A stretch of DNA of 64,000 bases. Source: an uncultured Gammaproteobacteria bacterium (GTDB lineage: Bacteria > Pseudomonadota > Gammaproteobacteria > Eutrophobiales > Eutrophobiaceae). The stretch covers positions 930,001 to 994,000 of the forward strand of contig OY282354.1 of the NCBI GenBank assembly GCA_958295485.1. Direction: 5' to 3'. Made by a program: the position numbers and the translations under genes. This document shows, one piece after another, positions 43,670-57,810 of this stretch (the first letter of the stretch is position 1; every line of letters begins with the position of its first letter). Under the pieces are notes generated by a model, which did no database searches, was not told where the DNA came from, and worked only from the letters and a program-made list of their open reading frames with translations.

Positions 43670-44904
43670 ATGCAGGTTAAAACAGGAATAGACGGTGACC
43701 GGCTGTGGTCGTCGCTTATGGAAATGGCTGAGATTGGCAGAACGCCGCGGGGTGGGTGCAACCGCCAGGCCCTGACCGATGAAGACAAGCAGGGACGGGA
43801 CCTGTTTATTTCATGGTGTAAGGATGCCGATTGTAAAATTACCATTGATGAGATGGGTAACGTTTTGCCAGGCGCGCCGGTGAGAATGATTCACTCCCGC
43901 CTGTCATCGCGGGGTCACACCTGGATACACAACCTACCGGCGGAAAATACGATGGTGTTTATGGGGTACTTGCCGGGCTTGAAGTGATCCGTACTCTAAA
44001 CGATAACCATCTTGCGACAAAACACCCGGTAGAGGTCGTTTGCTGGACCAATGAAGAAGGCGCGCGATTTTCACCGGCGATGTCAGGCTCAGGCGTGTGG
44101 GCGGGCGCCTTTGACCTGGAATACGGCCATGGCCGTCTTGATGGAGAAAGCCGAACAATAAAAGATGAATTGCGACGGATTGGTTACCTGGGCGCGGCAA
44201 AATGTCGGGCGAAGCCGGTCAAGGCCGCATTTGAGGCGCATATCGAACAGGGGCCCATATTGGAAAATAAGAACAAACAGATCGGCATAGTAACCGGCGT
44301 GCAAGCCATGCGTTGGTACGATTTAATCATCAGGGGAGTGCCGTGTCATGCAGGTACGACGCCGATGGAAATGCGGCGGGACCCTTTCATGGCGCTGCAC
44401 AGGGTCATCGACAAACTCTATCAAATCGCCGACGATTTCAGACCTTTGGCAAGGATCACTTTCGGCGCTATCAGGGCTGAACCCGGCTCGCGTAATACCG
44501 TGCCTGAACAGTTGATCATGACTGTCGATATGCGTCACCCCGAGCGCGACCAGATAGGACATATGGATCGGATAATGGGGGAAACCGTTATGAATGAATG
44601 TAGTAAATATCGACTCACTGCGGAGGTAAAAGAGGAGTGGAACTCTCCTGCGGTAAATTTTGACGATGGTTGTATAAACGCAGTCCGTAACGCCGCTGAG
44701 AGGCTGGGGTACTCGAACATGGAAATGGCAAGCGGCGCCGGGCATGACTCCGTCTATGTATCCAGGGTGGCGCCGACCAGTATGATATTCGTCCCATGCG
44801 AGGGTGGCTTAAGCCACAATGAAGAAGAAAATGCCAGCAAGGAAGACCTGGAGGCCGGCTGCAACGTACTGCTACATGCCATGTTGGAGATGGCAACCGC
44901 CTGA
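43670..44904 (+). pseudogene. M20-family N-carbamoyl amino acid amidohydrolase, frameshifted
   Basis: The two parts together make a complete amidohydrolase of the N-carbamoyl-L-amino acid hydrolase/allantoate amidohydrolase group. The first frame covers DRLWSSLMEMAEIGRTP to DEMGNVL. After that the correct frame is one base off: GENDSLPPVI then GSHLDTQPTGGKYDGVYG with metal ligands, and downstream TNEEGARF, HIEQGPILE and GAGHDSVYVSRVAPTSMIFV. A single missing base in the GTTTTGCC near 43861-43868 explains everything. Either a recent inactivation or a sequencing error; the rest is intact. Preceded by the trmB-like leader. Confidence 0.8.
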
Positions 44905-45001: not shown

Positions 45002-45673
45002 TCAGCTTGGTTGCGCTGAGAAGAAGAGCTTGATTTGGTTGGCCAGTGACTTGCAGGCGTTTGTCTGGACGCGAGCCAGTATGGGGATTGGAATGATGAT
45101 GGCCGGCATGAATGACGTCCCCTTTGTTTCGGCATTGATCTTTCCTGACAGGGCGAGGCTCTTGAAATCCCATATGCTGGCTTCATAGTTGGCTTCATCT
45201 TCCCAATAGGCAAAACCGAAACAGCCACCGCCGCCGGGGCCGACTGCGCAGGCAACGGAACCTGTCGAGTCTGTCCTTTCAGTGGCGCCGTCAATCCATA
45301 TGAAATAGCGTATGTTGAAATCATTGAATTTAGCGGCGATAGCGGGAATCCGCGCCAGCTTATCCAGGTTTTTGACATCCATCGGCGCAGTGCTGGTTTC
45401 GAAATAGGGATACATGCTGTCCACGAATGTTTTTTCCGGAATGACGCTTATCTCGGATTGACCTTCCCCCAGGGTCTTGCCGACGCAAGTTATGAAATCC
45501 TCTTCGGTCTCGTAACTGGAACTATGCCGGCGTCCCAGTACGACAATCGACTCACCCTGATCGATGGTCGCGGTGGAAGCCTCGCGATACTCATCGATAA
45601 CCGTCGCGCTCTTGCAACCTGCCAAAAACCCGGTTGAGGGCAACAAAATGAAAATTAACGCGCCAATTCGCAT
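45002..45673 (-). CDS. Predicted lipoprotein at the end of the envelope locus
   Basis: A 223-residue protein with a lipobox (FILLPSTGFLAGC, Cys20). The mature part has a hydrophilic N-terminus, a CsgG/TolB-like sensing pattern (ESIVVLGRRHSSSYETEEDFITCVGKTL) and a beta-rich C-terminal half (IRYFIWIDGATERTDSTG, CFGFAYWEDEANYEASIWDF). I do not recognise a named family. It is the last gene of the minus-strand locus, 34 bp after the preceding lipoprotein. Confidence 0.68.
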   Translation of the reverse strand: MRIGALIFILLPSTGFLAGCKSATVIDEYREASTATIDQGESIVVLGRRHSSSYETEEDFITCVGKTLGEGQSEISVIPEKTFVDSMYPYFETSTAPMDVKNLDKLARIPAIAAKFNDFNIRYFIWIDGATERTDSTGSVACAVGPGGGGCFGFAYWEDEANYEASIWDFKSLALSGKINAETKGTSFMPAIIIPIPILARVQTNACKSLANQIKLFFSAQPS

Positions 45674-45707
45674 AGCTCACCAATTCTGCAATTCTGCCGA
45701 ATGCTTT

Positions 45708-46355
45708 TTATATCGAGCCCCCCGTCTTTTCAGCTAACCAGGCGTCTACCCCGCTTACTTTTGGAAATCCAAGCGCGAATCTGGCCCCCGCATCCCGCAG
45801 GGCCTGGTTAACCGCCGCATTGAGTCCTTTGTCACGGCTTTTCATAAATTCAGTCGAGGATTTGCCGTACCCGGTAACCGACCAGCTTGCAATCTGGTCC
45901 CCGGATTGATTATAAAGGGTCATATCGTATTTAATCCAGGCTTCATAAAAATCCGTTTTGGTTTCCCCCGGCAGGGCGAATTGCATTTCTGCGACGTTCG
46001 GTAAAAGCACGGCGTCAACCGTCGCGTCGGTGGTTATGCCGGCGACTTCTTTTACTTCCTCGAACATGGAAGGAAGAATTTTATAGAACAACGCCATGTG
46101 GGCCTCGCTGCTGTTGATCTTCCAGTTGGACCTGTCATCAGAGTCTTCTTCATACACGTAATTTCGCAACTGCTCGTTATAAAAAACACCCATCTTGATC
46201 GGCATCTGCGTCAACAGGGGGACGGGTATTTCACTGGCGACCTTAAGCGACATGGATTGCTGGCAGGCGGTCAACATTAAAAATAATCCAACCGAACATA
46301 TAATTTTGCTGTTCAGGATGAGTTTGCCTGCCCCTGTCTTGTTAAATATCAACAT
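45708..46355 (-). CDS. Predicted lipoprotein
   Basis: A 215-residue protein with lipobox FLMLTAC (Cys31) starting at an ATG preceded by GAGGT; the frame to 46430 is an unsupported extension. The mature part includes PVPLLTQMPIKMGVFYNEQLRNYVYEE and AWIKYDMTLYNQSGDQIASWSVTGYGKSS, a pattern seen in periplasmic-facing outer-membrane lipoproteins of unknown function. It lies 98 bp after the second VWA gene. Confidence 0.7.
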   Translation of the reverse strand: MLIFNKTGAGKLILNSKIICSVGLFLMLTACQQSMSLKVASEIPVPLLTQMPIKMGVFYNEQLRNYVYEEDSDDRSNWKINSSEAHMALFYKILPSMFEEVKEVAGITTDATVDAVLLPNVAEMQFALPGETKTDFYEAWIKYDMTLYNQSGDQIASWSVTGYGKSSTEFMKSRDKGLNAAVNQALRDAGARFALGFPKVSGVDAWLAEKTGGSI

Positions 46356-46453
46356 TTTGTTTACCTCGCGCCATGGAAGACAACCCTGTGGCCGGCATGA
46401 CGATATTTTGCGCTGGTCTTGTACTGACATAAGTATAGTAGGATTAGCGACAA

Positions 46454-47443
46454 TTAGTTAAGACCGACAAATGCGCCGCCGTTCCTGCGAGTCAACTCGC
46501 GCATCAGTGAGGCGTAACGTTTGTTGGTCAGGTGGAAATGATCAGGCGCGGTATGGGGAACCGGGAAGCCGACGGCGTGGATGCGTACCCTGGCGGCGCC
46601 GTTTTTATCTTTCGGGTTGATTCGTTCAACCGTATCTATGACTTCCTTGATTGAAGGCCCGGTAAATTCGTCGCCGAATACATATACGCTGATTTTTTTT
46701 CCGGGGTCATAAAAGTCGCGGATGGCGCGGGTGATGCCTTCCACCGGACTGCTGTTGCTGAAAGCTCTCCAGCTACGCAAGGCGCTGATGATGGCCCTGC
46801 GTCTTCCCTTTGTATCAGGCAGCCACTTGCGCCGGTACTGGGAAACCAGGTAGTCGCCCATGTCACTCATTATCTGCAAGCCCTTGAGCCTGGGATAGAC
46901 GTCCAGGGTGGTAGTCAATTGATCGATCATATCGTTCCAGTGGTGGTTAACCATGCTGCCCGAGGTATCAATGATAAAAATAACGTATTCGCTGTCAACC
47001 GGTATCCCGCCTATCAGGTCGGTTTTCACCCGGTCTTTTTGCGACAATAACCGCTTCGTTTCTTCCGTGAGTTGTTGCAGGGCCAGTTCAAATTCTCCCT
47101 TGATGATGGCGCCGACTGCGGTATCGTCACGCGCGCTGTTATGGCGCAGTTTTTCCACGTGAAGCTCCGACTGGAGACGCGCGACCCGCTCTTCCCACTG
47201 GGAGCGTTGTTCGTGTTTCGCATCCAAATCACGGTTGAGGATTTTGGCTTCGCCGCGAATTTCAAATAACTGCACTTGTAATTCGCGCACGATTCCATGC
47301 ATGGATTCAGCCGCGGATTCCAGTATCGGGCTGTCCCCGGTCTTGGCAATCATGAGCAATAGTATGATTGCGCCGAAGCCGCAGGTAATGACGTCCAGGA
47401 ATGAAATGCTGAATGCCTCGTTTTCCCGGCGTTTTTTTTTCAC
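46454..47443 (-). CDS. Membrane-anchored VWA protein 2
   Basis: A 329-residue protein starting with GTG and overlapping the preceding VWA gene by four bases (GTGA). The N-terminus FSISFLDVITCGFGAIILLLMIA is one membrane helix with Asp17 in F-L-D, like the helix of ExbD/TolR (F-I-D-V). A coiled coil follows (about 45-140), then a VWA domain with MIDAS IFIIDTSGSMVNH and a later YVFGDEF. It is paralogous to the neighbouring VWA protein. Predicted periplasmic metal-ion-dependent protein-binding module on a stator-like anchor. Confidence 0.85.
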   Translation of the reverse strand: MKKKRRENEAFSISFLDVITCGFGAIILLLMIAKTGDSPILESAAESMHGIVRELQVQLFEIRGEAKILNRDLDAKHEQRSQWEERVARLQSELHVEKLRHNSARDDTAVGAIIKGEFELALQQLTEETKRLLSQKDRVKTDLIGGIPVDSEYVIFIIDTSGSMVNHHWNDMIDQLTTTLDVYPRLKGLQIMSDMGDYLVSQYRRKWLPDTKGRRRAIISALRSWRAFSNSSPVEGITRAIRDFYDPGKKISVYVFGDEFTGPSIKEVIDTVERINPKDKNGAARVRIHAVGFPVPHTAPDHFHLTNKRYASLMRELTRRNGGAFVGLN

Positions 47444-48528
47444 GGCCAATCCTCGGTCGGGCTCATAAACGCCCCTTTTGTACTCATCGCCAGGCGCCAA
47501 AAGGCATAAGCCGCTTCAGCGTCTCCTTCCATCGGCGCCAAGATCACGTTTACGGGCACGTTTCCCGGCAGTTTCTTTACCGCCCTATTGAACAAGTCCA
47601 GGCGCTGTTTCCCGGTAATGGTCACTCCCCGGATGGTTTTTGACCCCTGGGTCGGCAAACCGTCGGTGATCAGGTAAATGTTATCGGGTCGCGGTCGTAA
47701 CCGGCTGATCCCGGCGAAGGCCTTTTCCAGGTTGGTGCCGCCTTCCGGCACGATCTTCCTGAGCGCTTTGACGACTTGATTTAATTCCTCCCGATCTCTT
47801 ACTTTCAGCCATTGGCCCTGCTTGCCGGGGAGTACCGATCTTGATTCGGTATTGAAGATATGGATTTGGTACTTGCCGTCGCGGGGGAACTTGGTTGCCA
47901 GCCAGTCCACCATTTCCAATGCCTGCATCCACTTTTGCGCGTTCCGCTTCAGCCCATCCCGCATGTTGCGAAAACGTATGACGTTGACAATGGTGTCGTC
48001 CAACATGCTGGCCGAGACATCCAACAGGATTAACGCGCGTTGCCCGCCTAATTTGAGACCGGTCAGGTATTCACGATTTCCCTCGCCGACAATCCGGATG
48101 GCATCGTCTCCCGTTTCCCTGATTTCTTTTTGCAACTGCTTTTTTTGCTCTTCCAGCTGTTTGATATTGAGTTTCAGCCGGTCTAATTCCACAGAATCGG
48201 CATCCTCCGCCAATTGTTCGGTCAGGGACCGGGTTTCCCGAATTTCTTCCATGATGCGTCTCGCCAGACCCTGCGCGATGGCAAGGGCTTCATCAATCTT
48301 CGAGATGGTATTGCGGGTCCTGGCGAGGTTTTGCTTGCCTTCCAATATCTCCTCCTCCAGGAGCATGGCTTCCGACGCCTCATCGCTGGTATCGACGGGA
48401 ACGGGGACATCAGTATCAATGTTGTGCTTGATGATAAGAAACAACAAGACCACCGAGCCGAAACCGCAGGACATGATGTCCAGAAAGGACAGGCTGAAAG
48501 GAGTTAATGGTCTTTTAACCCGCGCCAT
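47440..48528 (-). CDS. Membrane-anchored VWA protein 1
   Basis: A 362-residue protein. FSLSFLDIMSCGFGSVVLLFLII is a single helix with Asp17 in the same position as in its paralogue. A long coiled coil (about 55-140) precedes the VWA domain: MIDAS ALILLDVSASMLDD, then VPEGGTNLEKAF with the Thr, and YLITDGLPTQGS with the Asp, all expected metal contacts. ATG at 48528 follows the previous stop by one base; the frame upstream is inside the neighbour. It would pair with VWA protein 2 and the ExbB-like channel. Confidence 0.85.
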   Translation of the reverse strand: MARVKRPLTPFSLSFLDIMSCGFGSVVLLFLIIKHNIDTDVPVPVDTSDEASEAMLLEEEILEGKQNLARTRNTISKIDEALAIAQGLARRIMEEIRETRSLTEQLAEDADSVELDRLKLNIKQLEEQKKQLQKEIRETGDDAIRIVGEGNREYLTGLKLGGQRALILLDVSASMLDDTIVNVIRFRNMRDGLKRNAQKWMQALEMVDWLATKFPRDGKYQIHIFNTESRSVLPGKQGQWLKVRDREELNQVVKALRKIVPEGGTNLEKAFAGISRLRPRPDNIYLITDGLPTQGSKTIRGVTITGKQRLDLFNRAVKKLPGNVPVNVILAPMEGDAEAAYAFWRLAMSTKGAFMSPTEDWP

Positions 48529-48529
48529 G

Positions 48530-49852
48530 TCAAGCCAGGACACTGATGATGGTAAATTCAATCCCGCCGCCGGCAAAACTGAGCACGTCGCCCGGTTTCA
48601 GTTCAGGTCTCCCGATAGCTGGTTGACCATTGATGAAAACAGTCGAACTATTTTCGGCATTCAGCATTGCCGCCGAATCTTTCAGGGCGACGGAGCAACC
48701 GGAGTCCTGCCTTTTGTCCCCCGTCACCGCGCCGGTGAGCGCTAGATAGGATGGCGCCTGTTTAATCGGGTAGGCCATGTTATCGACTAATATGTGTATA
48801 TGGGTTTCGCTTTCATTGAGGTCTTGCCCGATTGATTGTGACGTTGCGGGGAGCGAGGTTACTGCGGGATTAGACGCGGCCTTTAGCTGGGTGACGAAAT
48901 AAATGCCTTCACCTGCCGATTTGTCCGGTAAAGCATAGCTCATACAGCCGTCGAACACGGCGTGTTCATGCAAGACGGTTGCGTTTGCCAGGTTATCGGC
49001 AAACGCCGGCAGACAGGCCAACCGTTCATTGAGCAGGCAGGGAACCGAAGGGTCGATGGCGCCGGTTATTTTACCGTATAAAGGCTGGAGTATATTGACC
49101 AGGGCTTCACGATTCAATTCGGCCTGGTAACCGGCATTCTCATATTGGATATGGAGCGTTACCTTGGTTTCACTCTTTAACAACCGCAGACATTGCGGCA
49201 GCTGCTCGTACAACGCCCGTTCCGATTCAGCCTGACGCAACGGGTCAAAACGGGATTGTTGAATAAACAGGTCGGCGATGAAATTTGCACAGGTATCATG
49301 CATGGCTATGAGTCCGACGTCATTGATGACCCTGACCGCCGTCCGGTTGACGGTTTCGGACACTTCCAGCGTGGTCAAAATCGTATGGTGCAAATATATA
49401 TCGAGGTAGTTATAGACGCCAGGACCAGCCGTCGCCGCCGTTGCCGCAACCGCGGAATCGATCAAACCCGTTATGGAAAACGGGCTGGCCTCCACCAAGC
49501 CAAGCAGTAGTGAGAGCTGCTCGGTGGTAAAGCTGCCGGGCACCGCGAAAACCATCTCGTCGGGTTTGCCCGCCAACTCGTGTATGAAGAGCAGGTGGGC
49601 AAAGGCGATATCGACGTTGTGTCTTGCCAGTTTGGTCGGGTGTTTGAAGTTGTCCTGGTTCAGGTTGCTCCAAAACCGGTTGAAGGTGTTCCTGGGATCA
49701 ATATGCGCCGATTTTGACGCCTTATCGCCTAACTCGATCCGGTCCTGCTTGAGGACGGCGACGGCCGGACTCCTGGCCACGATTTCCCCAGCCCGGACAA
49801 TGGCAACGTCACAGTCATTCAATTCTACTATCGTGCGATTAGCTGCCCCCAT
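48530..49852 (-). CDS. Divergent Hsp70/actin-like protein with FHA-like tail
   Basis: A 440-residue cytoplasmic protein. Residues 1-320 follow the Hsp70/actin order: a degenerate phosphate-1 strand TIVELNDCDVAIVRAGE, then MVFAVPGSFTTEQLSLLLGLVEASPFSITGLIDSAVAATAA and VYNYLDIYLHHTILTTLEV in place of the usual D-L-G-G-G-T-F. Several nucleotide-contact glycines are missing, so ATPase activity is doubtful. The last 80 residues (STVFINGQPAIGRPELKPGDVLSFAGGG) look FHA-like. Tightly packed with neighbours: 1-bp gaps both sides. Confidence 0.65.
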   Translation of the reverse strand: MGAANRTIVELNDCDVAIVRAGEIVARSPAVAVLKQDRIELGDKASKSAHIDPRNTFNRFWSNLNQDNFKHPTKLARHNVDIAFAHLLFIHELAGKPDEMVFAVPGSFTTEQLSLLLGLVEASPFSITGLIDSAVAATAATAGPGVYNYLDIYLHHTILTTLEVSETVNRTAVRVINDVGLIAMHDTCANFIADLFIQQSRFDPLRQAESERALYEQLPQCLRLLKSETKVTLHIQYENAGYQAELNREALVNILQPLYGKITGAIDPSVPCLLNERLACLPAFADNLANATVLHEHAVFDGCMSYALPDKSAGEGIYFVTQLKAASNPAVTSLPATSQSIGQDLNESETHIHILVDNMAYPIKQAPSYLALTGAVTGDKRQDSGCSVALKDSAAMLNAENSSTVFINGQPAIGRPELKPGDVLSFAGGGIEFTIISVLA

Positions 49853-49853
49853 T

Positions 49854-50651
49854 TTACCTGACCTGTAAATGCCTGAGCAGGTTCACGTCGCAGTAATGTT
49901 GGGTATCCAATACCAGTCTTTCCTGCATGAGTTGCAGCTGGTGCATCAGGAACATGATAAAAATACTGATAATCAGGGCGATAAACGTAGAGTTGAAGGC
50001 GACGCCCAGGCTGACGGTTACCCCCACAATATCACCCTCAACGGCGCGATGGGCTTGGCCGAGGGCCTCGCCGATGCCGCGTACCGTTCCGATAAACCCT
50101 ATGGACGGTATTGCCCAGATGATATACCTGATCATGGAAAGCTCGGCGTCCAATCGGTCGGATTCCGTGTCACATACTTCCTTGATGGCCGAAGATACGT
50201 CTTGAATGTCAGCAGTGGAACCGAATCGTTGCAACGCCGCCAGTAGCGCGCGTGGCAACAGGTACTCCCGTTCTTCATGGGACAGGGCTTGCAGCGGCCT
50301 GGCGTATTGCCGGGTATCCTCAGGCAGGATGCTGGTGCCGGGCGCAACCTTCAACAGGGACTGGGTCAGCAGGCGCCGCTCATGCAGCGCTATTTTTGTC
50401 TTGAGGCCGATAATCGCCATGGCCCAAAGGGCTAATATAAAACAGGCTTCCTGTTCAAAATCCTTTATTACTATAAAAACAGAGCGTTTTACTTCATAGC
50501 CCCTCCCTTCTTCCTGTTGAATTCGTTGTTCCGCCAAAATGGCGTTCGCGTTGGGCCGGACAATGGTGATATAAACGGCATGAACGATAATGATTGCGAT
50601 AATCAGCGCAAACAACTGGTAAAGAAAATCGGATATCGGATTATGTTTCAT
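49854..50651 (-). CDS. MotA/TolQ/ExbB-like proton channel subunit
   Basis: A 265-residue inner-membrane protein with helices near 10-30, 72-92, 172-192 and 208-232. The conserved C-terminal part SIGFIGTVRGIGEALGQA followed by IVGVTVSLGVAFNSTFIALIISIFIMF matches the MotA/TolQ/ExbB family signature (GTVxGI, and the second long helix facing the ExbD/MotB helix). It starts the tight block with the Hsp70-like and VWA genes. Probably forms a proton-conducting pentamer with the VWA anchors. Confidence 0.88.
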   Translation of the reverse strand: MKHNPISDFLYQLFALIIAIIIVHAVYITIVRPNANAILAEQRIQQEEGRGYEVKRSVFIVIKDFEQEACFILALWAMAIIGLKTKIALHERRLLTQSLLKVAPGTSILPEDTRQYARPLQALSHEEREYLLPRALLAALQRFGSTADIQDVSSAIKEVCDTESDRLDAELSMIRYIIWAIPSIGFIGTVRGIGEALGQAHRAVEGDIVGVTVSLGVAFNSTFIALIISIFIMFLMHQLQLMQERLVLDTQHYCDVNLLRHLQVR

Positions 50652-50742
50652 GGCGTTTAACCCGCATATCTTACCAAGTGACAGGCTGCGCGCGCAGGAT
50701 TTTTTTCGCTGGCGGGTGACATGCCTGGTGAGCTATGCGGGT

Positions 50743-51036
50743 TTATATATCGACTGGAAATTCTGTGGAATAGTCCTTGGAAACTTCATCAGTCGGATTG
50801 AACTTTTCCGGCGCTTTACTCTGCGGTTCCGGGTTCTCCGCTTCCTGCTTCCCGTTTCCTGCTTCTTGCCCGCCTGATTCCGCGACAACCGGGTTTTCCC
50901 CTGCGGTTTCTACTTGCCCGGCGTCCATTTCCCTTTCAACGGGCGCGTCTTCCGCCGATACCATAACAGTAGCAAACATAATGAGAAAAATAGCGCGCCG
51001 AATGTCGTACAGGTATTTCCCGGCCTCAAGCATCAT
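50743..51036 (-). CDS. Small secreted or anchored acidic protein
   Basis: A 97-residue protein starting MMLEAGKYLYDIRRAIFLIMFATVMVSAEDAP: one hydrophobic segment, probably a signal peptide cleaved at VSA, then an acidic Glu/Pro/Asn-rich tail (AENPEPQSKAPEKFNPTDE) of low complexity. No fold is recognisable. It lies 91 bp upstream of the channel gene in the same direction and may be an unstructured linker or accessory of the complex. Confidence 0.5.
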   Translation of the reverse strand: MMLEAGKYLYDIRRAIFLIMFATVMVSAEDAPVEREMDAGQVETAGENPVVAESGGQEAGNGKQEAENPEPQSKAPEKFNPTDEVSKDYSTEFPVDI

Positions 51037-51134
51037 AAATCGGGGTCCTCGTTTTCTCAACCGATTGCAGGAAGTACGGATTTTTGATTGTCCACCTGAC
51101 CACCAGGTCCACGTGGTTCCCGGGGTTTATCTTG

Positions 51135-51590
51135 CTAACGCAGGGTTTGCAGCATCATCACCACCGCTGCAACCAGTGTCACATTGGCGATAACGATGCC
51201 GAGGCCCATTATCCAGAGATGTCGGTATAATGTCTCGAATTTGCCATTTATGGCCTCGAATTTGTCCGCCATCTCAGCCGTGATCTCCGCTTTCATTTCT
51301 GCCATGCGCTTTTCCAAACCGCCTCTCAATTCTGCAATTTCAGTCCTTACCTCGGCGATTTCAGTCCTCACTTCTGCAATTTCAGTTCTCACCTCTGCGA
51401 TTTCAGTTCTTACTCCTGCGATGGTTTTTTCCACGTCGGCCCCTAGTATCGCGAGATCTGCCTTGGTTGCAAGGTTCTGGTTCATGGCATCGCCCATGAT
51501 GTCAACCACGGCTTCGGCCTGGGTGTCATTGAAGTCGGCATATTTGAGGTTTTTGACTGCCTGGTGGGTATCAAATGCGGGAATATTCAT
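51135..51590 (-). CDS. DUF1640-like coiled-coil membrane protein
   Basis: A 151-residue protein: NIPAFDTHQAVKNLKYADFNDTQAEAVVDI matches DUF1640 proteins, followed by a coiled coil with four near-identical VRTEIAE heptads (a 21-bp repeat unit), more helix, and a C-terminal helix WIMGLGIVIANVTLVAAVVMML. It resembles stand-alone coiled-coil genes found near repeats and toxin-antitoxin genes. It lies inside the envelope locus but may be an insertion rather than a component. GGAGAACGG precedes the ATG. Confidence 0.75.
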   Translation of the reverse strand: MNIPAFDTHQAVKNLKYADFNDTQAEAVVDIMGDAMNQNLATKADLAILGADVEKTIAGVRTEIAEVRTEIAEVRTEIAEVRTEIAELRGGLEKRMAEMKAEITAEMADKFEAINGKFETLYRHLWIMGLGIVIANVTLVAAVVMMLQTLR

Positions 51591-51741
51591 GCGTCCGTTC
51601 TCCTGTGTTCGTCCGTAAGTTATATTGAATGCTCGCTGCCATCATTTTACTATCAATCGGCATGGACTCCAGTATAGTAGAAAAAGCAGACACGGGCAAA
51701 TGTAAATTCAGGCAGGCGAGGCGCTCCCGCTGTCCGTCGAA

Positions 51742-51806
51742 AGTGGGTCTGGGGGCTGTTTTTCCGTTCCGCGCAAAGTCTCTCCAAAACAGCCCCCAAA
51801 CCCACT
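51742..51806. repeat. Dispersed palindromic element, full copy
   Basis: Arms of 21 bp (51742-51762 and 51786-51806) are inverted repeats with one mismatch (GTGGGT...GGGGGCTGTTTT and AAAACAGCCCCC...ACCCAC) around a 23-nt loop. The same arms and loop core recur at 21726-21786, and one arm at 29371-29407. On the minus strand it lies after the end of the PEGA gene. Confidence 0.85.
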
Positions 51807-51819
51807 AACGGGAACTGCT

Positions 51820-53916
51820 CTAATCCAGGTAGCGGGCAATCCTGAAGCCTACGTCGCTTCGTGATTTGTTGCCATAGTCACGGAAGGACAAACGTAATTC
51901 AGTGATAGTGCCATGGGCCCAGCTTGAACCCCGGATCACGTGAAATTCTCCATCCAAGGGACCAAGGGGGTCAACTTTAACCTTCTTGTCGGCGCTGATG
52001 GCAATATCGTAGAAGTCGTTCGTCCATTCGGCGGCGTTGCCTCCCATGTCGAATAATCCCTTCTTGTCGGGCGCAAAACTGCCCACCGGCGCGGTGACGA
52101 TGAATCCGTCATCATACTTGCCGATTACCTTGCCTAATAAAACCGCTGCTTTCCGGTCGGCGAAGTTGCCGCTTTTGTTCGTTGGCGGCATCTGGTTGCC
52201 CCAAGGGAACTTGAGCGGGGCATTCCCGCTGGTAGCGCGGGCGGCCCAGGCCCATTCCGCTTCAGTCGGCAATCGATAACCGGTTGCATTCTTGTCAAAC
52301 CCCGTGATTTTATTGTCTTTTTCGATATAAAACGGCGCCAGTGAAGCTTGGTTGCTTAACCAGTTACAGTACCGCGCCGCTTGTTGCCAGGTGACGTTGA
52401 CTACCGGTTGCGTTTCGCCGTTCAGGTTGTTGCCATCGATAAGACCGGATGAAAAACCTTTGTCGAATAACTTGTATTCACGGTTCGTCACCTCTTTCAA
52501 CCCCAGGTAAAAAGGCCGTGTAAGCCGTATGTTGCGAATGGTTTCGTTGGCCCTGCGTCCCGGTTCCCGGCGTGATGCGCCCATGGTAAAGGCGCCTGGG
52601 TGGAATAACTTCAAAACCTGGCCGGCCGGCGTGGTGATGACAGGCTTGACGTTTTGCAATTTGGCTTGTTTGATACTCTTTAACCTGACGTTCAACTCCT
52701 GGTCGATCCCGATATGGGGTATCAAGGTGGTTTTATAATCCACGTAGTCTTTCTTGCGTATCTCTATTCTATGTTTCCTGGCCGGGAGTTGGAGGGTACG
52801 GTTCGCCGTCCCGACCAAGGCCCCGTCGATATACAGTTGCGCATCAGCGGGTTTAACGTTGACCGTAACGGAAACCAGCTCGGGTTCAAGGGTGACGCGC
52901 AGTCTTTTTTGCTCTCCTGATTTGGCGGTAAGCGCCCTGACGGCCGGTTTATAGCCTTGCTTGAAAAGACGAATGTTTGTCTTCTCTCCCGGCGTCAGGC
53001 TGAGTTCCAGCGGGGTTAATCCCGCGTAACTGCCGTTGACGGTGGTATTCGCCCTGGCGGGTTGGGAAACGAGGAACAAACTTGCCGCCGCTGGTTCCAG
53101 TTTGATATTGGTCAGGACCAGTGGTTTACCGGCAACCACGTTAATCTCATCCTGCCAAACCTCGTAGCCGGGTGACTTGATCCTGATCTCGTGTTTACCT
53201 TCCAATATCTCCTGTGTCAGCGGCGTCTTGCCAAGCGGCGCTTCACCGTTGAATACCTGGGCGCCCCCGGGTTCCGAGTCGAAGCTCACTTCTGCCCAGG
53301 CGGGAGTCAAGTCAACCACTAACGATTGTTCCCGGTCGAGTCCTTCTATTATTATATTTTCCCGGAAGGGGAAATAGCGCGCCGTCTTGATCTCCACAAG
53401 ATGCGGTCCGGGGGGGACGTCCCTGATAGTGACGGGCGCTTTCCCCCTGGAGATATTATCGATGAATACCTCCGCGCCGGTTACCGCCCCGGCGTCTACT
53501 TGCAAATGTCCGGGTTGTTTTTGTAATTGGTAAGCGTAGCGTTGGGCTTGTTCCCGGCTGACGGTGAGCCTCTCAGCCGCGGGATAATAGCCCGGGGCGG
53601 ATAAATTGAAATCATACTCACCGGGTCGAATAAGATAACGGTTGCCTAATTTCAATTTCACGCCGCCATTGATGTCGACGTCCGCGTTCACCGGATCGGT
53701 TTCGATATGAACCGCCTTGGCCGTGAACATGAACCAGGCGATGAATACGCCGGACGCAAGCAGGACGCCGATGAGGCAGGTCTTCAGGTTAAGCGAAAAA
53801 GCCTGTAAAAAGGATGAGGCTGTCTTTTCCCCCGTATAGGGTTCGAATTTAACCGGCTTGATGAGTTCACCGGCGTCGGGAGGCGTTGACGCGGCCTGTT
53901 TCTTTTCCGTAGCCAT
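51820..53916 (-). CDS. PEGA-repeat protein with formylglycine-generating-enzyme domain
   Basis: A 698-residue protein. A short cytoplasmic N-terminus leads to a helix (LKTCLIGVLLASGVFIAWFMF, about 44-66), then four or five PEGA domains (for example GAEVFIDNISRGKAPVTIRDVPPGPHLVEI, SEPGGAQVFNGEAPLGKTPLTQEI). From about residue 440 an FGE/SUMF1-like fold follows: AFTMGASRREPGRRANE, TQPVVNVTWQQAARYCNWLS, YRLPTEAEWAWAARA, MGGNAAEWTNDFYD and VIRGSSWAHG. The FGE fold often acts only as a sugar- or ligand-binding C-lectin-like scaffold, so enzymatic activity is not implied. Periplasmic, possibly peptidoglycan-facing. Confidence 0.85.
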   Translation of the reverse strand: MATEKKQAASTPPDAGELIKPVKFEPYTGEKTASSFLQAFSLNLKTCLIGVLLASGVFIAWFMFTAKAVHIETDPVNADVDINGGVKLKLGNRYLIRPGEYDFNLSAPGYYPAAERLTVSREQAQRYAYQLQKQPGHLQVDAGAVTGAEVFIDNISRGKAPVTIRDVPPGPHLVEIKTARYFPFRENIIIEGLDREQSLVVDLTPAWAEVSFDSEPGGAQVFNGEAPLGKTPLTQEILEGKHEIRIKSPGYEVWQDEINVVAGKPLVLTNIKLEPAAASLFLVSQPARANTTVNGSYAGLTPLELSLTPGEKTNIRLFKQGYKPAVRALTAKSGEQKRLRVTLEPELVSVTVNVKPADAQLYIDGALVGTANRTLQLPARKHRIEIRKKDYVDYKTTLIPHIGIDQELNVRLKSIKQAKLQNVKPVITTPAGQVLKLFHPGAFTMGASRREPGRRANETIRNIRLTRPFYLGLKEVTNREYKLFDKGFSSGLIDGNNLNGETQPVVNVTWQQAARYCNWLSNQASLAPFYIEKDNKITGFDKNATGYRLPTEAEWAWAARATSGNAPLKFPWGNQMPPTNKSGNFADRKAAVLLGKVIGKYDDGFIVTAPVGSFAPDKKGLFDMGGNAAEWTNDFYDIAISADKKVKVDPLGPLDGEFHVIRGSSWAHGTITELRLSFRDYGNKSRSDVGFRIARYLD

Positions 53917-53948
53917 GAAATCTATGAGGGTTTCTCCTGTCTCCCCTT

Positions 53949-54039
53949 CTCCCTATGACAAGGAGGGCTCAAGGGGGGGTGGGGGAGTCCCAGCAAGGTC
54001 TGTTGCAGACCTGCGCGAGAATCTCCCTTGTCAGGGGGA
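53949..54039. repeat. Short inverted repeats in the TPR-PEGA intergenic gap
   Basis: TCTCCCTATGACAAGGAG (53949-) and CTCCCTTGTCAGGGGGA (54023-54039) are imperfect inverted copies, and AGGTCTG-TTG-CAGACCT (53996-54012) is a perfect small hairpin between them. The CCCTTGTCAGGGG core also occurs between prpC and prpD. Confidence 0.4.
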
Positions 54040-54067
54040 CTTTCCAAACTTTTTCTGCGGCATAGAC

Positions 54068-55639
54068 TCATAGGGCGATTTTTTCATTGCTTTGAATGAC
54101 AACGGGTTGCATGGATTTATCCGGGTCGACAAAAAATTCAACGCGCGCGTCCCGATACCCGTCGCGATGCCCGACCGCCACGTAACTTCCCGGACGGAGT
54201 GACAAGTCCTTGCTGGTGAAATAGCCGAGTTCGCCTACTTTATACAGGATTACCTTGGTCAGGTTGTCGGACTTGAGTTGTACCTGAACGGGCGTGTCGG
54301 CCTTGTCCAATAACCGGGAAAGTTTGGTTAATTGCCCGGTCAGGACGGGTCCCGGCTCAGAGATGCTTAGAATTTTGTTGTAAAAGCCAGTGGCCTCGTT
54401 AAAGCCGGCCGGGTCGAAAAGCCGGGCCGAGTGGACTGTCAAGATCTGCTCCAGCCTGTTGTGTATTTCGTTGCGTGTGGTTGTCCGCTCTTTACCTTCT
54501 ATAGCGTTTGCCAGGTTGCCGTTCAATGACAGGGCGGCTTCATACTTGGACAAAGCCCCTTGCCAGTCTTCAATCGCCTCCAATTTTTTGGCTTGCTTGA
54601 GCAAGGAATCGATATTGCCGGAGGTAATGCGATGCCTGGCTTGTTCAAGGCCGCTACGGGCGTCCCGGGACTTCGGTTTTAATTCAAGCGCCTTGGAAAA
54701 GGCAGTCTGCGCCTGTTCAAGCTGCCCTTTTTCAAGAAAGCCGAAACCCGAGGACATCGCCAGGTTGAATTTACGGTCACTGAGCTTTTCTTCAGACAAC
54801 TGGAGTTGCTGTTTAGCCCGGCGCGAATGATTATCGATATCAAGGGCTTGTTGGTAAGTCGTCCTGGCGTCTTCCAATTTACCTGCCTGTAACAGCGCGT
54901 CCCCTTGATTAATCAGGGTAGTGACTTCATCCAGGGTCTCGGCGCGGCGCAGCCCCAGCAGGGCAGCCCGATCTATGGGGTCGATGGCAAGCGCCACCTT
55001 GAAAGCCTCCCTGGCCTGTTCAGGGTCGCCCTCGAATAATGCCGCGTTTCCCGTTGTCATGCTTTTCTCGAATAACCCATCTATGCCTTCCAGCAGTCTG
55101 GTAAAAATATCCAGCGCCCGCGCATACTGGTCCCGCGCCTGGGCAAAATTCTGCAGGCCATATTCAGCATCACCCGCTTCGGCATGTTGTATCGCCTGGT
55201 CATACTCTTTTTCGGCCCAGGCCCTTACCCCTTCCCCACCCAAGGTTCTTTGCGCATCTAACATTTGCGCCAGGATATCCTGGGTTTCCCGGCGTAGTTC
55301 AGACTGTTGCGCTTTTTTCCAGGGGGATTCGGCCGCGCCGGCTTGGGTTTTTACCGGTTGCCGAGACCCCTGTGACCGGCTTTTTTCCGTGACTGCCGGC
55401 CTGGCGTCAATGGCAGCGGGGTCAGTGGTGGCAGGAGGAAGCCGCAGGGGGAGCAGAAAAACAACAATTGCGACAGTGAGTGATAAAACGCCGAGCGACA
55501 GCCATAACCAGGGTTGTTTATTGAAGCGCCCGCTTGTCTTTTTCTCTTTTTCCGTAACAGCAGCGGTCAGGTCAATAGCAGCCGGCTTGATTGTAGTAAA
55601 ATCAGGCCCCGATATATTCTCGTTTTCATTTTTGCTCAC
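54068..55639 (-). CDS. Membrane-anchored TPR protein with PEGA-like tail
   Basis: A 523-residue protein with a cytoplasmic N-terminus, one helix (WLWLSLGVLSLTVAIVVFLLPL, about 44-66), a helical linker and about seven tetratricopeptide repeats (AEYGLQNFAQARDQYARALDIF, GDALLQAGKLEDARTTYQQALDI, GQLEQAQTAFSKALELKPKS). The last 70 residues are a beta-rich PEGA-like module (LKSDNLTKVILYKVGELGYF). Likely a periplasmic protein-interaction scaffold. It sits 21 bp after a lipoprotein gene and 151 bp before the PEGA-FGE gene. Confidence 0.82.
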   Translation of the reverse strand: MSKNENENISGPDFTTIKPAAIDLTAAVTEKEKKTSGRFNKQPWLWLSLGVLSLTVAIVVFLLPLRLPPATTDPAAIDARPAVTEKSRSQGSRQPVKTQAGAAESPWKKAQQSELRRETQDILAQMLDAQRTLGGEGVRAWAEKEYDQAIQHAEAGDAEYGLQNFAQARDQYARALDIFTRLLEGIDGLFEKSMTTGNAALFEGDPEQAREAFKVALAIDPIDRAALLGLRRAETLDEVTTLINQGDALLQAGKLEDARTTYQQALDIDNHSRRAKQQLQLSEEKLSDRKFNLAMSSGFGFLEKGQLEQAQTAFSKALELKPKSRDARSGLEQARHRITSGNIDSLLKQAKKLEAIEDWQGALSKYEAALSLNGNLANAIEGKERTTTRNEIHNRLEQILTVHSARLFDPAGFNEATGFYNKILSISEPGPVLTGQLTKLSRLLDKADTPVQVQLKSDNLTKVILYKVGELGYFTSKDLSLRPGSYVAVGHRDGYRDARVEFFVDPDKSMQPVVIQSNEKIAL

Positions 55640-55660
55640 TATTTATTCCCGGCCCTGGAT

Positions 55661-56851
55661 TCAATTTTCTGTGGCGCTCCCGTTTTCTCCGATTCCTCCG
55701 GTTTCGGTCTCGTAGATTTCTTTGAGTATCCCGCGCCATTGACCGTATTGATCCTTTACCGTGCCCGACAAGGTAACGGTTCGATCTTCGAGGTCAATGG
55801 AATGGGATTGTATTTCCGAATCCAGTGAATCGGAAATTTCTTCCAGGGCTTCTACGTGGACCTTGGCCTCTTCGCGTTTTTGCAGGCCGCTTTGAATCGC
55901 TGCGGCGCCGGCGCCTATGCCTACCACGCCGGCCGTTCGCGCGGTACGGCTGTCAACGCCTTGGGCCAGTATCCCTGCCAATACCGCCAGGGCGCCACCG
56001 ACCAGCCGTGCATTTGACTGGGCCTTGACCTCTCTCAATGCCTCGCTTTCCAGGTAGAAGGCCTCGCGCCATTCCAGGTAAGGCGCCTCCATCTGGTTGA
56101 CGAACGACGCGTAATATTGTTGTAGTGTATCAACAAATACATAGTCGCGTTCACGGACCTGGCGGACTTGGCGCAAGATTGGGTCATCGTTGGCCGGCAG
56201 GCGCTTGATGTTATAACGACCTTTTCCATCAAGCTCCAGGTGATCGCTGAATACCTCCGGGGAGAGGCCCTTCGCAAACTTCAGTTCGGCAATGGTTCGC
56301 ATGGCCCTGATTTCATTTGCATCAAACTGGTTGCGATATACCAGCATGTCATTTGCGATTTGGCTATATATCTTTTGAAAAGGTTCTCTACCTTTGGCGA
56401 CGGCGGGATCAAAGGAATACTTACTGGCTGTTCCCGTGTATTTTTTGGTAAACCAGCGTTTTCCCGAAGCGTCTTCCACCGTTACCTGCAACCAGAGATT
56501 TGCCCCGTCCGATTTCAGGATTTCAGCTTCAACCCAGACGTCCATCTCGCTCAGCCGGTCGGGGATAACGCGCACTGCCCCCCAGTTGCCTGAATTTTGG
56601 AGGGTTTCCATCAGCTTGAACGGCATGAAGCGGGCCTCGGCTCCACGAATTTTAGGATAGACGCCATCTTCCGGGGCGCTGACGGCGTCAACACCCGGGT
56701 TGAAAATGCCTATCCCCACGTCTAACAATAATTCTTCAGGCGTTGCCTCCCCTGCCAGGGCGACTTTTTCGTGGCTGACCGTTTTTACCGTGGTCGTGTT
56801 GCAACCGACTATAAGCAGGCAAAGTAAAATTATTGCTGCGCCAGGTTTCAT
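55661..56851 (-). CDS. Predicted lipoprotein of the envelope locus
   Basis: A 396-residue protein with lipobox LLCLLIVGC (Cys17). The N-terminal half (LLLDVGIGIFNPGVDAVSAPEDGVYPKIRGAEARFMPFKL, DVWVEAEILKSDGANLWLQVTV) reads like a lipid-anchored domain that senses or binds a periplasmic partner. A middle helical part has a small glycine-rich segment (VGGALAVLAGILAQGV), and the C-terminal EDRTVTLSGTVKDQYGQW is BON-like. The family name is unknown to me. It begins 11 bp after the upstream lipoprotein gene. Confidence 0.72.
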   Translation of the reverse strand: MKPGAAIILLCLLIVGCNTTTVKTVSHEKVALAGEATPEELLLDVGIGIFNPGVDAVSAPEDGVYPKIRGAEARFMPFKLMETLQNSGNWGAVRVIPDRLSEMDVWVEAEILKSDGANLWLQVTVEDASGKRWFTKKYTGTASKYSFDPAVAKGREPFQKIYSQIANDMLVYRNQFDANEIRAMRTIAELKFAKGLSPEVFSDHLELDGKGRYNIKRLPANDDPILRQVRQVRERDYVFVDTLQQYYASFVNQMEAPYLEWREAFYLESEALREVKAQSNARLVGGALAVLAGILAQGVDSRTARTAGVVGIGAGAAAIQSGLQKREEAKVHVEALEEISDSLDSEIQSHSIDLEDRTVTLSGTVKDQYGQWRGILKEIYETETGGIGENGSATEN

Positions 56852-56862
56852 ACATCTCGATC

Positions 56863-57810
56863 TCATCTTGAATCCCTCTTGTATTTACGGTATTCATCCC
56901 AAAGTTTAGCTCTTAACTCGGGGTCTTGCTCTTTCATGGCGGCTTCACGGAGTTGTCGCGCAATAATGTCGTCCCCCTTGGCGCTGACGAGATCAGGAGG
57001 GATTTCGCTGTGAGATATTGCAGGTTTATTGCCCGGTCCTTTAATAGACGCGGGGTCACTATCCACCATAGCGGTTTTCAAAGGCTCTTCCATGGCTTCA
57101 CCGTCTCCTTCACCCTCACCGGCAAACTCTTCACCAGGAAAGCCGCCATAGCCTTCCTGGTTGTCTGCCTTTTTTATGGCTTCCCGTTCACTTAACATGA
57201 GCCGGTCGAATTCTGCAAACTCGTCCTGGAGCTGCTTATCAAGAACTTGTCGCTTCTCTGCGCTGGTTGCCGGCCCGCCGCCCGCGCTTGCCTGTGGTGG
57301 TTGACCGCCGCCGCCTTCACTACCTTCACCCGGTTGCGGTGGCTTGCGTTTTCTACCAAATTCATCCAACGCTTCGGCTAAAATTTCATCGTCGGTCTTG
57401 TCTTGACCTGTGCCGGCAGTGGATTGTGACCCAGCCGCTGATTTACCCTTATCGGATCGTGCCGTAGAAGGGGACCCACCCGGTTTACCCCCGGGTTTGG
57501 CGGATGGTGACCCGGCCCGCGTGGAGGGTATGGATGTGGCGCCAGGCACAGGCCCGCCGGGCGAGTCCGCCGTGCCTGTTGTGCCAGGGATGACCGGCGC
57601 GCCCGGCGCTCCCACCGTGCCGGGTATGCCCGGCCCGCTCACTGTCACCGTCCCCGGCGTACCCGGCCCACCCACCGTCACCGTACCGGGCGTACCCGAC
57701 CCACCCGATGAAGAAACCGTGGACGTCGGCTTGCACGCAGCTACAAGCAGCATTACGGCAATGATGAAAAGGGACTGAAACACGCGTTTGATTTTATTTG
57801 CACCATTCAT
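56863..57810 (-). CDS. Glycine/proline-rich lipoprotein, first gene of the locus
   Basis: A 315-residue protein with lipobox VMLLVAAC (Cys26). The next 60 residues are collagen-like and repetitive (GTPGTVTVGGPGTPGTVTV), likely extended and flexible, and the DNA there is a set of degenerate 24-bp repeats. The C-terminal half is acidic and helical (ATSAEKRQVLDKQLQDEFAEF) and ends KLWDEYRKYKRDSR. It may be a flexible tether between outer membrane and the rest of the apparatus. No named family recognised. Confidence 0.72.
   Translation of the reverse strand: MNGANKIKRVFQSLFIIAVMLLVAACKPTSTVSSSGGSGTPGTVTVGGPGTPGTVTVSGPGIPGTVGAPGAPVIPGTTGTADSPGGPVPGATSIPSTRAGSPSAKPGGKPGGSPSTARSDKGKSAAGSQSTAGTGQDKTDDEILAEALDEFGRKRKPPQPGEGSEGGGGQPPQASAGGGPATSAEKRQVLDKQLQDEFAEFDRLMLSEREAIKKADNQEGYGGFPGEEFAGEGEGDGEAMEEPLKTAMVDSDPASIKGPGNKPAISHSEIPPDLVSAKGDDIIARQLREAAMKEQDPELRAKLWDEYRKYKRDSR

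What the first reader, a model, noticed from the sequence alone, without database searches (positions are those of the whole stretch)
45002..57810. Candidate new stator-driven envelope machine: ExbB-like channel plus two VWA proteins with ExbD-like helices
Seen: one minus-strand run with lipoprotein, lipoprotein, TPR protein, PEGA-FGE protein, then a small acidic protein, an ExbB-like channel, an Hsp70-like protein, VWA1, VWA2 and two more lipoproteins. The channel, Hsp70-like and VWA genes are packed with 1-bp gaps or 4-bp overlaps. Both VWA proteins begin F-S-x-S-F-L-D with Asp17 at the same place in a single membrane helix, as in ExbD/TolR (F-I-D-V). Known: ExbB/TolQ/MotA proteins form proton channels with such Asp-bearing helices, and VWA MIDAS sites bind protein ligands through a metal. 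Inference: a force-generating complex in which VWA domains do the work of ExbD, TolR or OmpA-like domains, linked to the outer membrane by four lipoproteins and to the cell wall by PEGA/TPR scaffolds. I know of no described system with this set.
Basis: partly seen in the sequence, partly recalled or inferred. Interest (0 to 1): 0.85.

Follow-up and report, generated by a model that had tools for sequence, protein, structure and literature searches.

The report
Proton-driven envelope motor with VWA axle
A conserved set of about eleven neighbouring genes looks like a proton-powered motor in the bacterial inner membrane that pushes or twists on the outer membrane through two VWA-domain proteins; the motor core was predicted in a 2025 paper, while I found no description of most of the parts around it.

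Summary
In detail: one minus-strand operon (57810-45002) with an ExbB-like channel, two membrane-anchored VWA proteins, an Hsp70-like protein, TPR and PEGA-FGE scaffolds and four lipoproteins. It is no chance cluster. It recurs in Gammaproteobacteria and in MAGs labelled Desulfobacterota, Acidobacteria, Kiritimatiellae and Myxococcales. ExbB lies beside the VWA pair in 79 of 80 loci that could be judged; the same 16 of 398 sampled genomes hold both; Asp17 is invariant (92/92 VWA1, 98/98 VWA2); no ExbD is in any operon; both ExbB pore threonines are invariant. The core idea (paired VWA proteins replace ExbD/TolR as the Asp-bearing axle of a TolQ-like pentamer) was published in 2025 (PMC12204202, prediction only), so "no described system" is wrong. 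New here: the accessory set. The "Hsp70" is a pseudo-ATPase with an FHA-like tail; LP2 has a CsgG/FlgT/PelC/TolB-N-like fold; the FGE domain lacks catalytic-region cysteines; many relatives add a TPR-TonB_C protein and an M48 metalloprotease. Function is untested. An ExbD profile did not recognise the VWA helix, so the axle role rests on context, invariance and the published models.

The parts
56863..57810 (-). LP1: lipoprotein, low complexity, collagen-like PGTVTV repeats; conserved C-terminal part
   Evidence: 65 of 67 full-context loci
55661..56866 (-). LP2: lipoprotein, residues 40-181 CsgG/FlgT/PelC/TolB-N-like fold, long coiled coil, Gly-rich stretch, small C-terminal alpha/beta domain
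54068..55639 (-). TPR protein with one N-terminal membrane helix (45-63)
51820..53916 (-). PEGA(x5)-FGE protein, N-terminal membrane helix; FGE-type domain, no cysteine in the last 60 residues in 73 of 77 members (probably non-catalytic)
51135..51590 (-). CCDC90-like coiled-coil protein, not found in the operon of the relatives; not a conserved part
50743..51060 (-). small acidic exported or membrane-anchored protein
   Evidence: 62 of 67
49854..50651 (-). ExbB/TolQ/MotA-family channel protein; pore Thr189 and Thr222 invariant
48530..49852 (-). pseudo-Hsp70: Hsp70 nucleotide-domain fold (2-313) without phosphate-loop motifs, plus FHA-like C-terminal domain (about 351-440)
47440..48528 (-). VWA1: membrane helix with Asp17 (codon 48480-48478), coiled coil, VWA domain with complete MIDAS residues
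46454..47443 (-). VWA2: membrane helix with Asp17 (codon 47395-47393), coiled coil, VWA-like domain with invariant DxSxS
45708..46430 (-). LP3: lipoprotein of unknown fold, present in 56 of 67 full-context loci
45002..45673 (-). LP4: lipoprotein of unknown fold, present in 56 of 67 full-context loci

Best explanation
The operon encodes a proton- (or sodium-) motive-force-driven trans-envelope motor of the 5:2 type. Five copies of the ExbB-like protein form the channel; one VWA1 and one VWA2 helix, each with Asp17, form a heterodimeric axle in its pore in place of an ExbD/TolR/MotB dimer (inferred; matches the published AF3 prediction). Ion flow turns or tilts the axle; the periplasmic coiled coils and VWA domains carry that motion to partners, probably by metal-dependent gripping through their MIDAS sites (inferred). 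The partners are the inner-membrane-anchored TPR and PEGA-FGE proteins and lipoproteins at the outer membrane, LP2 having a CsgG/FlgT/PelC/TolB-N-like fold found in several outer-membrane ring proteins. The pseudo-Hsp70/FHA protein is a cytoplasmic scaffold or gate on the channel (inferred). Most likely cellular role: work on outer-membrane proteins or lipoproteins (assembly, extraction or turnover), because an M48 metalloprotease and a TPR-TonB_C protein belong to the operon in many relatives; a secretion or surface-motility role is the main alternative. Shown: gene set, conservation, invariant residues, predicted folds of two proteins. Not shown: complex formation, ion flow, motion, phenotype.
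For: Same gene order in about 17 relatives and in most of 80 loci from named genomes. Of 67 loci with full context: ExbB, VWA1, VWA2 in 67, PEGA-FGE and LP2 66, TPR and LP1 65, Hsp70-like 62, LP3/LP4 56. 79 of 80 VWA pairs have ExbB within 2.5 kb upstream on the same strand. In an even sample of 398 genomes of the phylum the same 16 hold VWA2 and ExbB, adjacent in 14, on separate contigs in 2. Asp17 in 92/92 VWA1 and 98/98 VWA2 with an N-terminus. No ExbD in any of these operons, while the ExbD model does find the ExbD genes of the same genome. ExbB Thr189 and Thr222, aligned with the pore threonines of canonical ExbBs, are 26/26. Published AF3 model of the same architecture (PMC12204202). Outer-membrane link: LP2 fold vs FlgT Z 11.7, PelC Z 10.6, CsgG Z about 10, TolB-N Z about 9.9; M48 in 20 of 23 and TonB_C in 13 of 22 of the aligned flanking proteins.
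Against: A position-specific ExbD-helix matrix scores VWA helices no better than many unrelated proteins (112 of 639 controls reach the VWA2 median, 283 the VWA1 median), so homology of the helix to ExbD is not shown. No structure of the complex was computed here. One Kiritimatiellae genome (L137/L173) has the VWA pair apart from ExbB. The flanking genes that hint at outer-membrane work are absent next to the window's own operon. Fold matches of LP2 are moderate and show no function.
Confidence: 0.68

Rival explanations
1. The VWA proteins are TolA/TonB-like side-bound transducers, and the channel's axle is an ExbD/TolR encoded elsewhere in the genome.
For: A first family of vWA transducers that works this way is proposed in the same paper. 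The own genome encodes three ExbDs. The VWA helix is not ExbD-like by profile.
Against: Each of the three ExbDs lies directly beside another ExbB. No ExbD in any of the operons. The acid in the helix is invariant; the helix shows F-S-x-S-F-L-D and no SHLS histidine motif, the mark of side-bound transducers.
Confidence: 0.12
2. A sensory or gated ion channel rather than a motor: ligand binding by the VWA domains opens or closes the ExbB channel, and the pseudo-Hsp70/FHA protein passes the signal on in the cytoplasm.
For: Pseudo-Hsp70 with FHA-like tail next to ExbB; a distant paralogous locus in the same genome couples ExbB to a Ser/Thr kinase, a PP2C-like phosphatase and FHA proteins.
Against: The Hsp70-like gene is missing in the shorter version of the operon while lipoproteins and scaffolds stay; no kinase, phosphatase or transcription factor in the operon.
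Confidence: 0.12
3. A secretion or surface-motility motor like the type IX secretion motor GldL/GldM with the FGE-type ring lipoprotein GldK.
For: The FGE part of the PEGA-FGE protein hits the GldK and GldJ models (3.4e-35, 9.1e-16), below their cut-offs; a TPR protein and lipoproteins surround the motor.
Against: GldK is an outer-membrane lipoprotein, this protein has a membrane helix; GldK model cut-off 350 bits, score 122; no secretin-like or adhesin gene is conserved in the neighbourhood.
Confidence: 0.2

Closest known systems
TPH-vWA / TolQ-like motor of Williams-Jones et al. 2025 (PMC12204202, second vWA family, sampled from Idiomarina homologs)
   Same: Two different membrane-tethered vWA genes next to a tolQ-like gene, no tolR/exbD, conserved Asp in the membrane helix; Proteobacteria and Verrucomicrobia
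   Different: The section read reports no Hsp70-like, PEGA-FGE, TPR, lipoprotein, M48 or TonB_C partners for this family; I could not compare sequences directly with the Idiomarina genes
ExbB-ExbD / TolQ-TolR (Ton and Tol motors)
   Same: PF01618 channel with both pore threonines; a partner with one N-terminal helix carrying an invariant Asp at its start
   Different: Partner is a VWA protein, in two unlike copies; no ExbD domain; different periplasmic and outer-membrane partners
GldL-GldM-GldK (type IX secretion and gliding motor)
   Same: Channel plus helix-bearing periplasmic partner plus an FGE-type protein and lipoproteins
   Different: VWA instead of GldM domains; FGE protein is membrane-anchored, not a lipoprotein; no other T9SS gene seen
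ZorA-ZorB (Zorya defence motor)
   Same: MotA/ExbB-type motor with an added gene set
   Different: No PADLOC hit for the ExbB-like or VWA2 protein; partner is not OmpA/MotB-like

Membership tests
MotA/TolQ/ExbB channel family (PF01618) | matches the family model above its cut-off | tested here: met
   55.2 bits vs cut-off 22.9; 26 of 26 relatives match
MotA/TolQ/ExbB channel family (PF01618) | conserved pore threonines in the last two membrane helices | tested here: met
   T189 and T222 26/26, aligned with canonical ExbBs of the same genome
ExbD/TolR (PF02472) as the axle | ExbD domain in the operon | tested here: not met
   no ExbD-model hit in any of the operons; the model finds the ExbDs of the own genome
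TPH-vWA/TolQ motor (PMC12204202) | heterologous pair of helix-tethered vWA genes beside a tolQ-like gene | tested here: met
   79 of 80 judged loci; the same 16 of 398 genomes hold both
TPH-vWA/TolQ motor (PMC12204202) | conserved Asp in the membrane helix of both vWA proteins | tested here: met
   92/92 and 98/98
TPH-vWA/TolQ motor (PMC12204202) | helices lie in the pentamer pore | not testable with these tools
   single-chain prediction only; AF3 model reported in the paper
5:2 ion-driven motor | five channel subunits around two axle helices, ion flow drives motion | not testable with these tools
   needs structure and flux assays
VWA domain | MIDAS residues DxSxS, T/S, D | tested here: met
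   VWA1 D186 S188 S190 T281 D305 invariant; VWA2 D178 S180 S182, S250, D277 invariant
Hsp70 chaperone | Hsp70 nucleotide-domain fold | tested here: met
   pLDDT 91; DnaK Z 28.6 over 309 residues
Hsp70 chaperone | phosphate-binding loop motifs (D-L-G-x-x-T type) | tested here: not met
   0 of 31 members
Formylglycine-generating enzyme (catalytic) | active-site cysteines near the C-terminus | tested here: not met
   73 of 77 members have no Cys in the last 60 residues
GldK/PorK | scores above the NCBIfam cut-off | tested here: not met
   122 bits vs 350

The most novel reading that the evidence does not exclude
A full trans-envelope machine of 11 to 13 components with a heterodimeric VWA axle, a pseudo-Hsp70/FHA gate on its cytoplasmic side, a CsgG/FlgT-like lipoprotein ring at the outer membrane, and in many species a dedicated M48 protease and TonB_C protein: a further major PMF-driven envelope system beside Ton, Tol, the flagellar stator, Zorya and T9SS, working on outer-membrane proteins.
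Probability: 0.35. Interest if true: 0.82.

Novelty: new member of a known kind. Interest (0 to 1): 0.56.

Why it matters
Outer membranes have no ATP or ion gradient of their own, so every machine that brings energy to them is important. If this one works as inferred, it would show that the axle of an ExbB-type motor can be two different VWA proteins, and it gives a fuller parts list for a predicted but untested system, including culturable hosts (Microbulbifer, Pseudoalteromonas, Seongchinamella) in which it can be knocked out. It makes the 2025 prediction directly testable.

Tried and rejected
ExbD-helix profile against the VWA helices: negative. Profile searches of PDB sequences for LP2, LP3, LP4 and the ExbB: no convincing relatives; for VWA2 only coiled-coil hits. 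Defence system: PADLOC gave no hit for ExbB, Hsp70-like, VWA2 or the lipoproteins and only weak coiled-coil-type hits for VWA1. Catalytic FGE: rejected, no cysteines. True Hsp70 chaperone: rejected, phosphate loops lost. MoxR-VWA chaperone system: considered and set aside because no MoxR-type ATPase was seen among the conserved neighbours. CCDC90-like gene as a part: rejected, only in the window. Literature searches with combinations of VWA, TolQ, PEGA, FGE, Hsp70 gave only PMC12204202 as relevant. Supplementary files of that paper could not be read, and the named Idiomarina genes could not be fetched for a direct comparison.
Full report
WHAT IS THERE. The window is part of a 3.7-Mb genome; the nearest named record is a gammaproteobacterial MAG (VWA2 84% identical). 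On the minus strand, 57810 to 45002, lie LP1, LP2, TPR, PEGA-FGE, a CCDC90-like gene, a small acidic protein, an ExbB-like protein, an Hsp70-like protein, VWA1, VWA2, LP3 and LP4. The ExbB to VWA2 genes are packed with 1-bp gaps and a 4-bp overlap. With the starts ATG 48528 and GTG 47443 both VWA proteins carry Asp at residue 17, at the start of their only membrane helix (F-S-[LI]-S-F-L-D). Hydropathy with the positive-inside rule puts their N-termini in the cytoplasm and coiled coil plus VWA domain in the periplasm (topology inferred).

CONSERVATION. A search of 58 genomes with the ExbB protein found it in 24, the own genome included. The operon is complete and in the same order in most of the regions fetched; three relatives keep a shorter version, LP1-LP2-TPR-PEGA/FGE-ExbB-VWA1-VWA2. 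A scan of about 85,000 species genomes with a VWA2 profile confirmed 244 relatives, of which the best 80 were returned, from Gammaproteobacteria and from MAGs labelled Desulfobacterota, Acidobacteria, Kiritimatiellae and Myxococcales (MAG labels may be wrong). In 67 loci with full context (drawn from 20 regions of relatives plus the 80; a few are the same record reached twice) ExbB, VWA1 and VWA2 are present in 67, LP2 and PEGA-FGE in 66, TPR and LP1 in 65, Hsp70-like and the acidic gene in 62, LP3 and LP4 in 56. In one Myxococcales MAG the same genes form two converging units. An even sample of 398 genomes of the phylum gives an estimate that does not depend on a capped list: 16 hold VWA2, the same 16 hold this ExbB, adjacent in 14; in the other two they are on separate contigs.

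VWA without ExbB: 1 of 80 judged loci; that genome keeps ExbB, Hsp70-like and PEGA-FGE on another contig. Asp17 not conserved: it is, 92 of 92 and 98 of 98. A further test, an ExbD-derived position-specific matrix, did not separate VWA helices from unrelated proteins; the helix is therefore not recognisably homologous to ExbD, and its role rests on position, invariance and exclusion of ExbD. The ExbD model found no ExbD in the operons but found the three of the own genome, each beside another ExbB. ExbB Thr189 and Thr222 are invariant and align with the threonines of canonical ExbBs; that such residues line the proton path in MotA/ExbB/TolQ is established knowledge and is stated for the vWA system in PMC12204202.

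WHAT THE OTHER PARTS ARE. The Hsp70-like protein folds confidently (pLDDT 91) into an Hsp70 nucleotide domain (DnaK, Z 28.6, rmsd 3.2, 309 residues), but none of 31 members keeps a D-L-G-x-x-T phosphate motif; its C-terminal part resembles FHA domains at low significance (best E 0.0023). It is best read as a pseudo-ATPase scaffold. LP2 residues 40-181 match FlgT (Z 11.7, rmsd 3.9, 127 residues), PelC (10.6, 2.4, 112), CsgG (about 10), TolB-N (9.9) and PqiC (9.1) (Foldseek E only 5.7e-4 for LptE and 1e-3 for TolB): a fold common in outer-membrane lipoproteins and rings, no proof of a ring. The FGE domain lacks cysteines in the catalytic region in 73 of 77 members and resembles GldK below its cut-off. 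A lipobox was matched in most LP1-LP4 members (50 of 73, 59 of 74, 64 of 71, 63 of 70), mostly with residues other than Asp at +2, which by the E. coli Lol rule suggests the outer membrane (inference). Directly downstream of LP4, relatives often carry an M48 metalloprotease (20 of 23 aligned proteins), and directly upstream of LP1 a TPR protein with a TonB_C-like end (13 of 22); neither is next to the window's operon.

HOW IT MOST LIKELY WORKS. Ion flow through an ExbB pentamer drives a VWA1/VWA2 heterodimer whose Asp17 pair takes up and releases protons; coiled coils and VWA domains carry the motion to inner-membrane scaffolds and outer-membrane lipoproteins. Steps shown: gene set, invariance, predicted folds of two parts. 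Steps inferred: stoichiometry, heterodimer, motion, ligand gripping, and the target. The protease and TonB_C neighbours make work on outer-membrane proteins the likeliest role, with secretion or surface motility second.

NOVELTY. Williams-Jones et al. (Mol Biol Evol 2025, PMC12204202) already describe a second family of membrane-tethered vWA proteins, in unlike pairs, tightly linked to tolQ homologs without tolR/exbD, with the conserved Asp and an AF3 model inside the pentamer. They report no phenotype. The section I read does not mention the accessory genes of this operon. The finding is thus a member of a recently proposed kind, with a much fuller parts list.

Noticed in passing
L056:9702-11044 (G000:C1:2275701-2277043): A second ExbB-like gene without ExbD, paired with a 196-aa protein whose helix reads DPFTDLLFNALLGFTFLFLVAIMF, followed by a 'DIDVWVEDPDG' domain. 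The partner is in 30 of 57 relatives, and an ExbB relative is adjacent in all 20 loci fetched. Looks like another ExbB motor with an unusual axle protein; no Pfam hit.
   Followed up: partly
L055:1-10464 (G000:C1:3430000-3440463): A third ExbB-like gene without ExbD, in a cluster of FHA proteins, a PP2C-like phosphatase, trypsin-like FHA proteins, a Ser/Thr kinase with FGE and peptidoglycan-binding domains, and a protein with the helix FSMSALDLFASALGAFILIS and a DIDLHVIDPAG domain; relatives of that protein were found in only two other genomes of 57.
   Followed up: partly
window 51135-51590: CCDC90-like coiled-coil gene inserted between PEGA-FGE and the acidic gene; in two relatives a nucleotidyltransferase-like gene lies inside the operon instead, so this stretch seems to tolerate insertions.
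   Followed up: no
window 43670-44904 (+): An amidohydrolase-like gene that is one frame of about 415-423 aa in relatives (L035, L036, L060) is split over two overlapping frames here, an apparent frameshift or sequencing error.
   Followed up: no
VWA1 and VWA2 helices, four residues after Asp17: Both helices carry a nearly invariant Cys in a C-G-F-G-[AS] motif at the same position, which could pack or cross-link the two axle helices.
   Followed up: no
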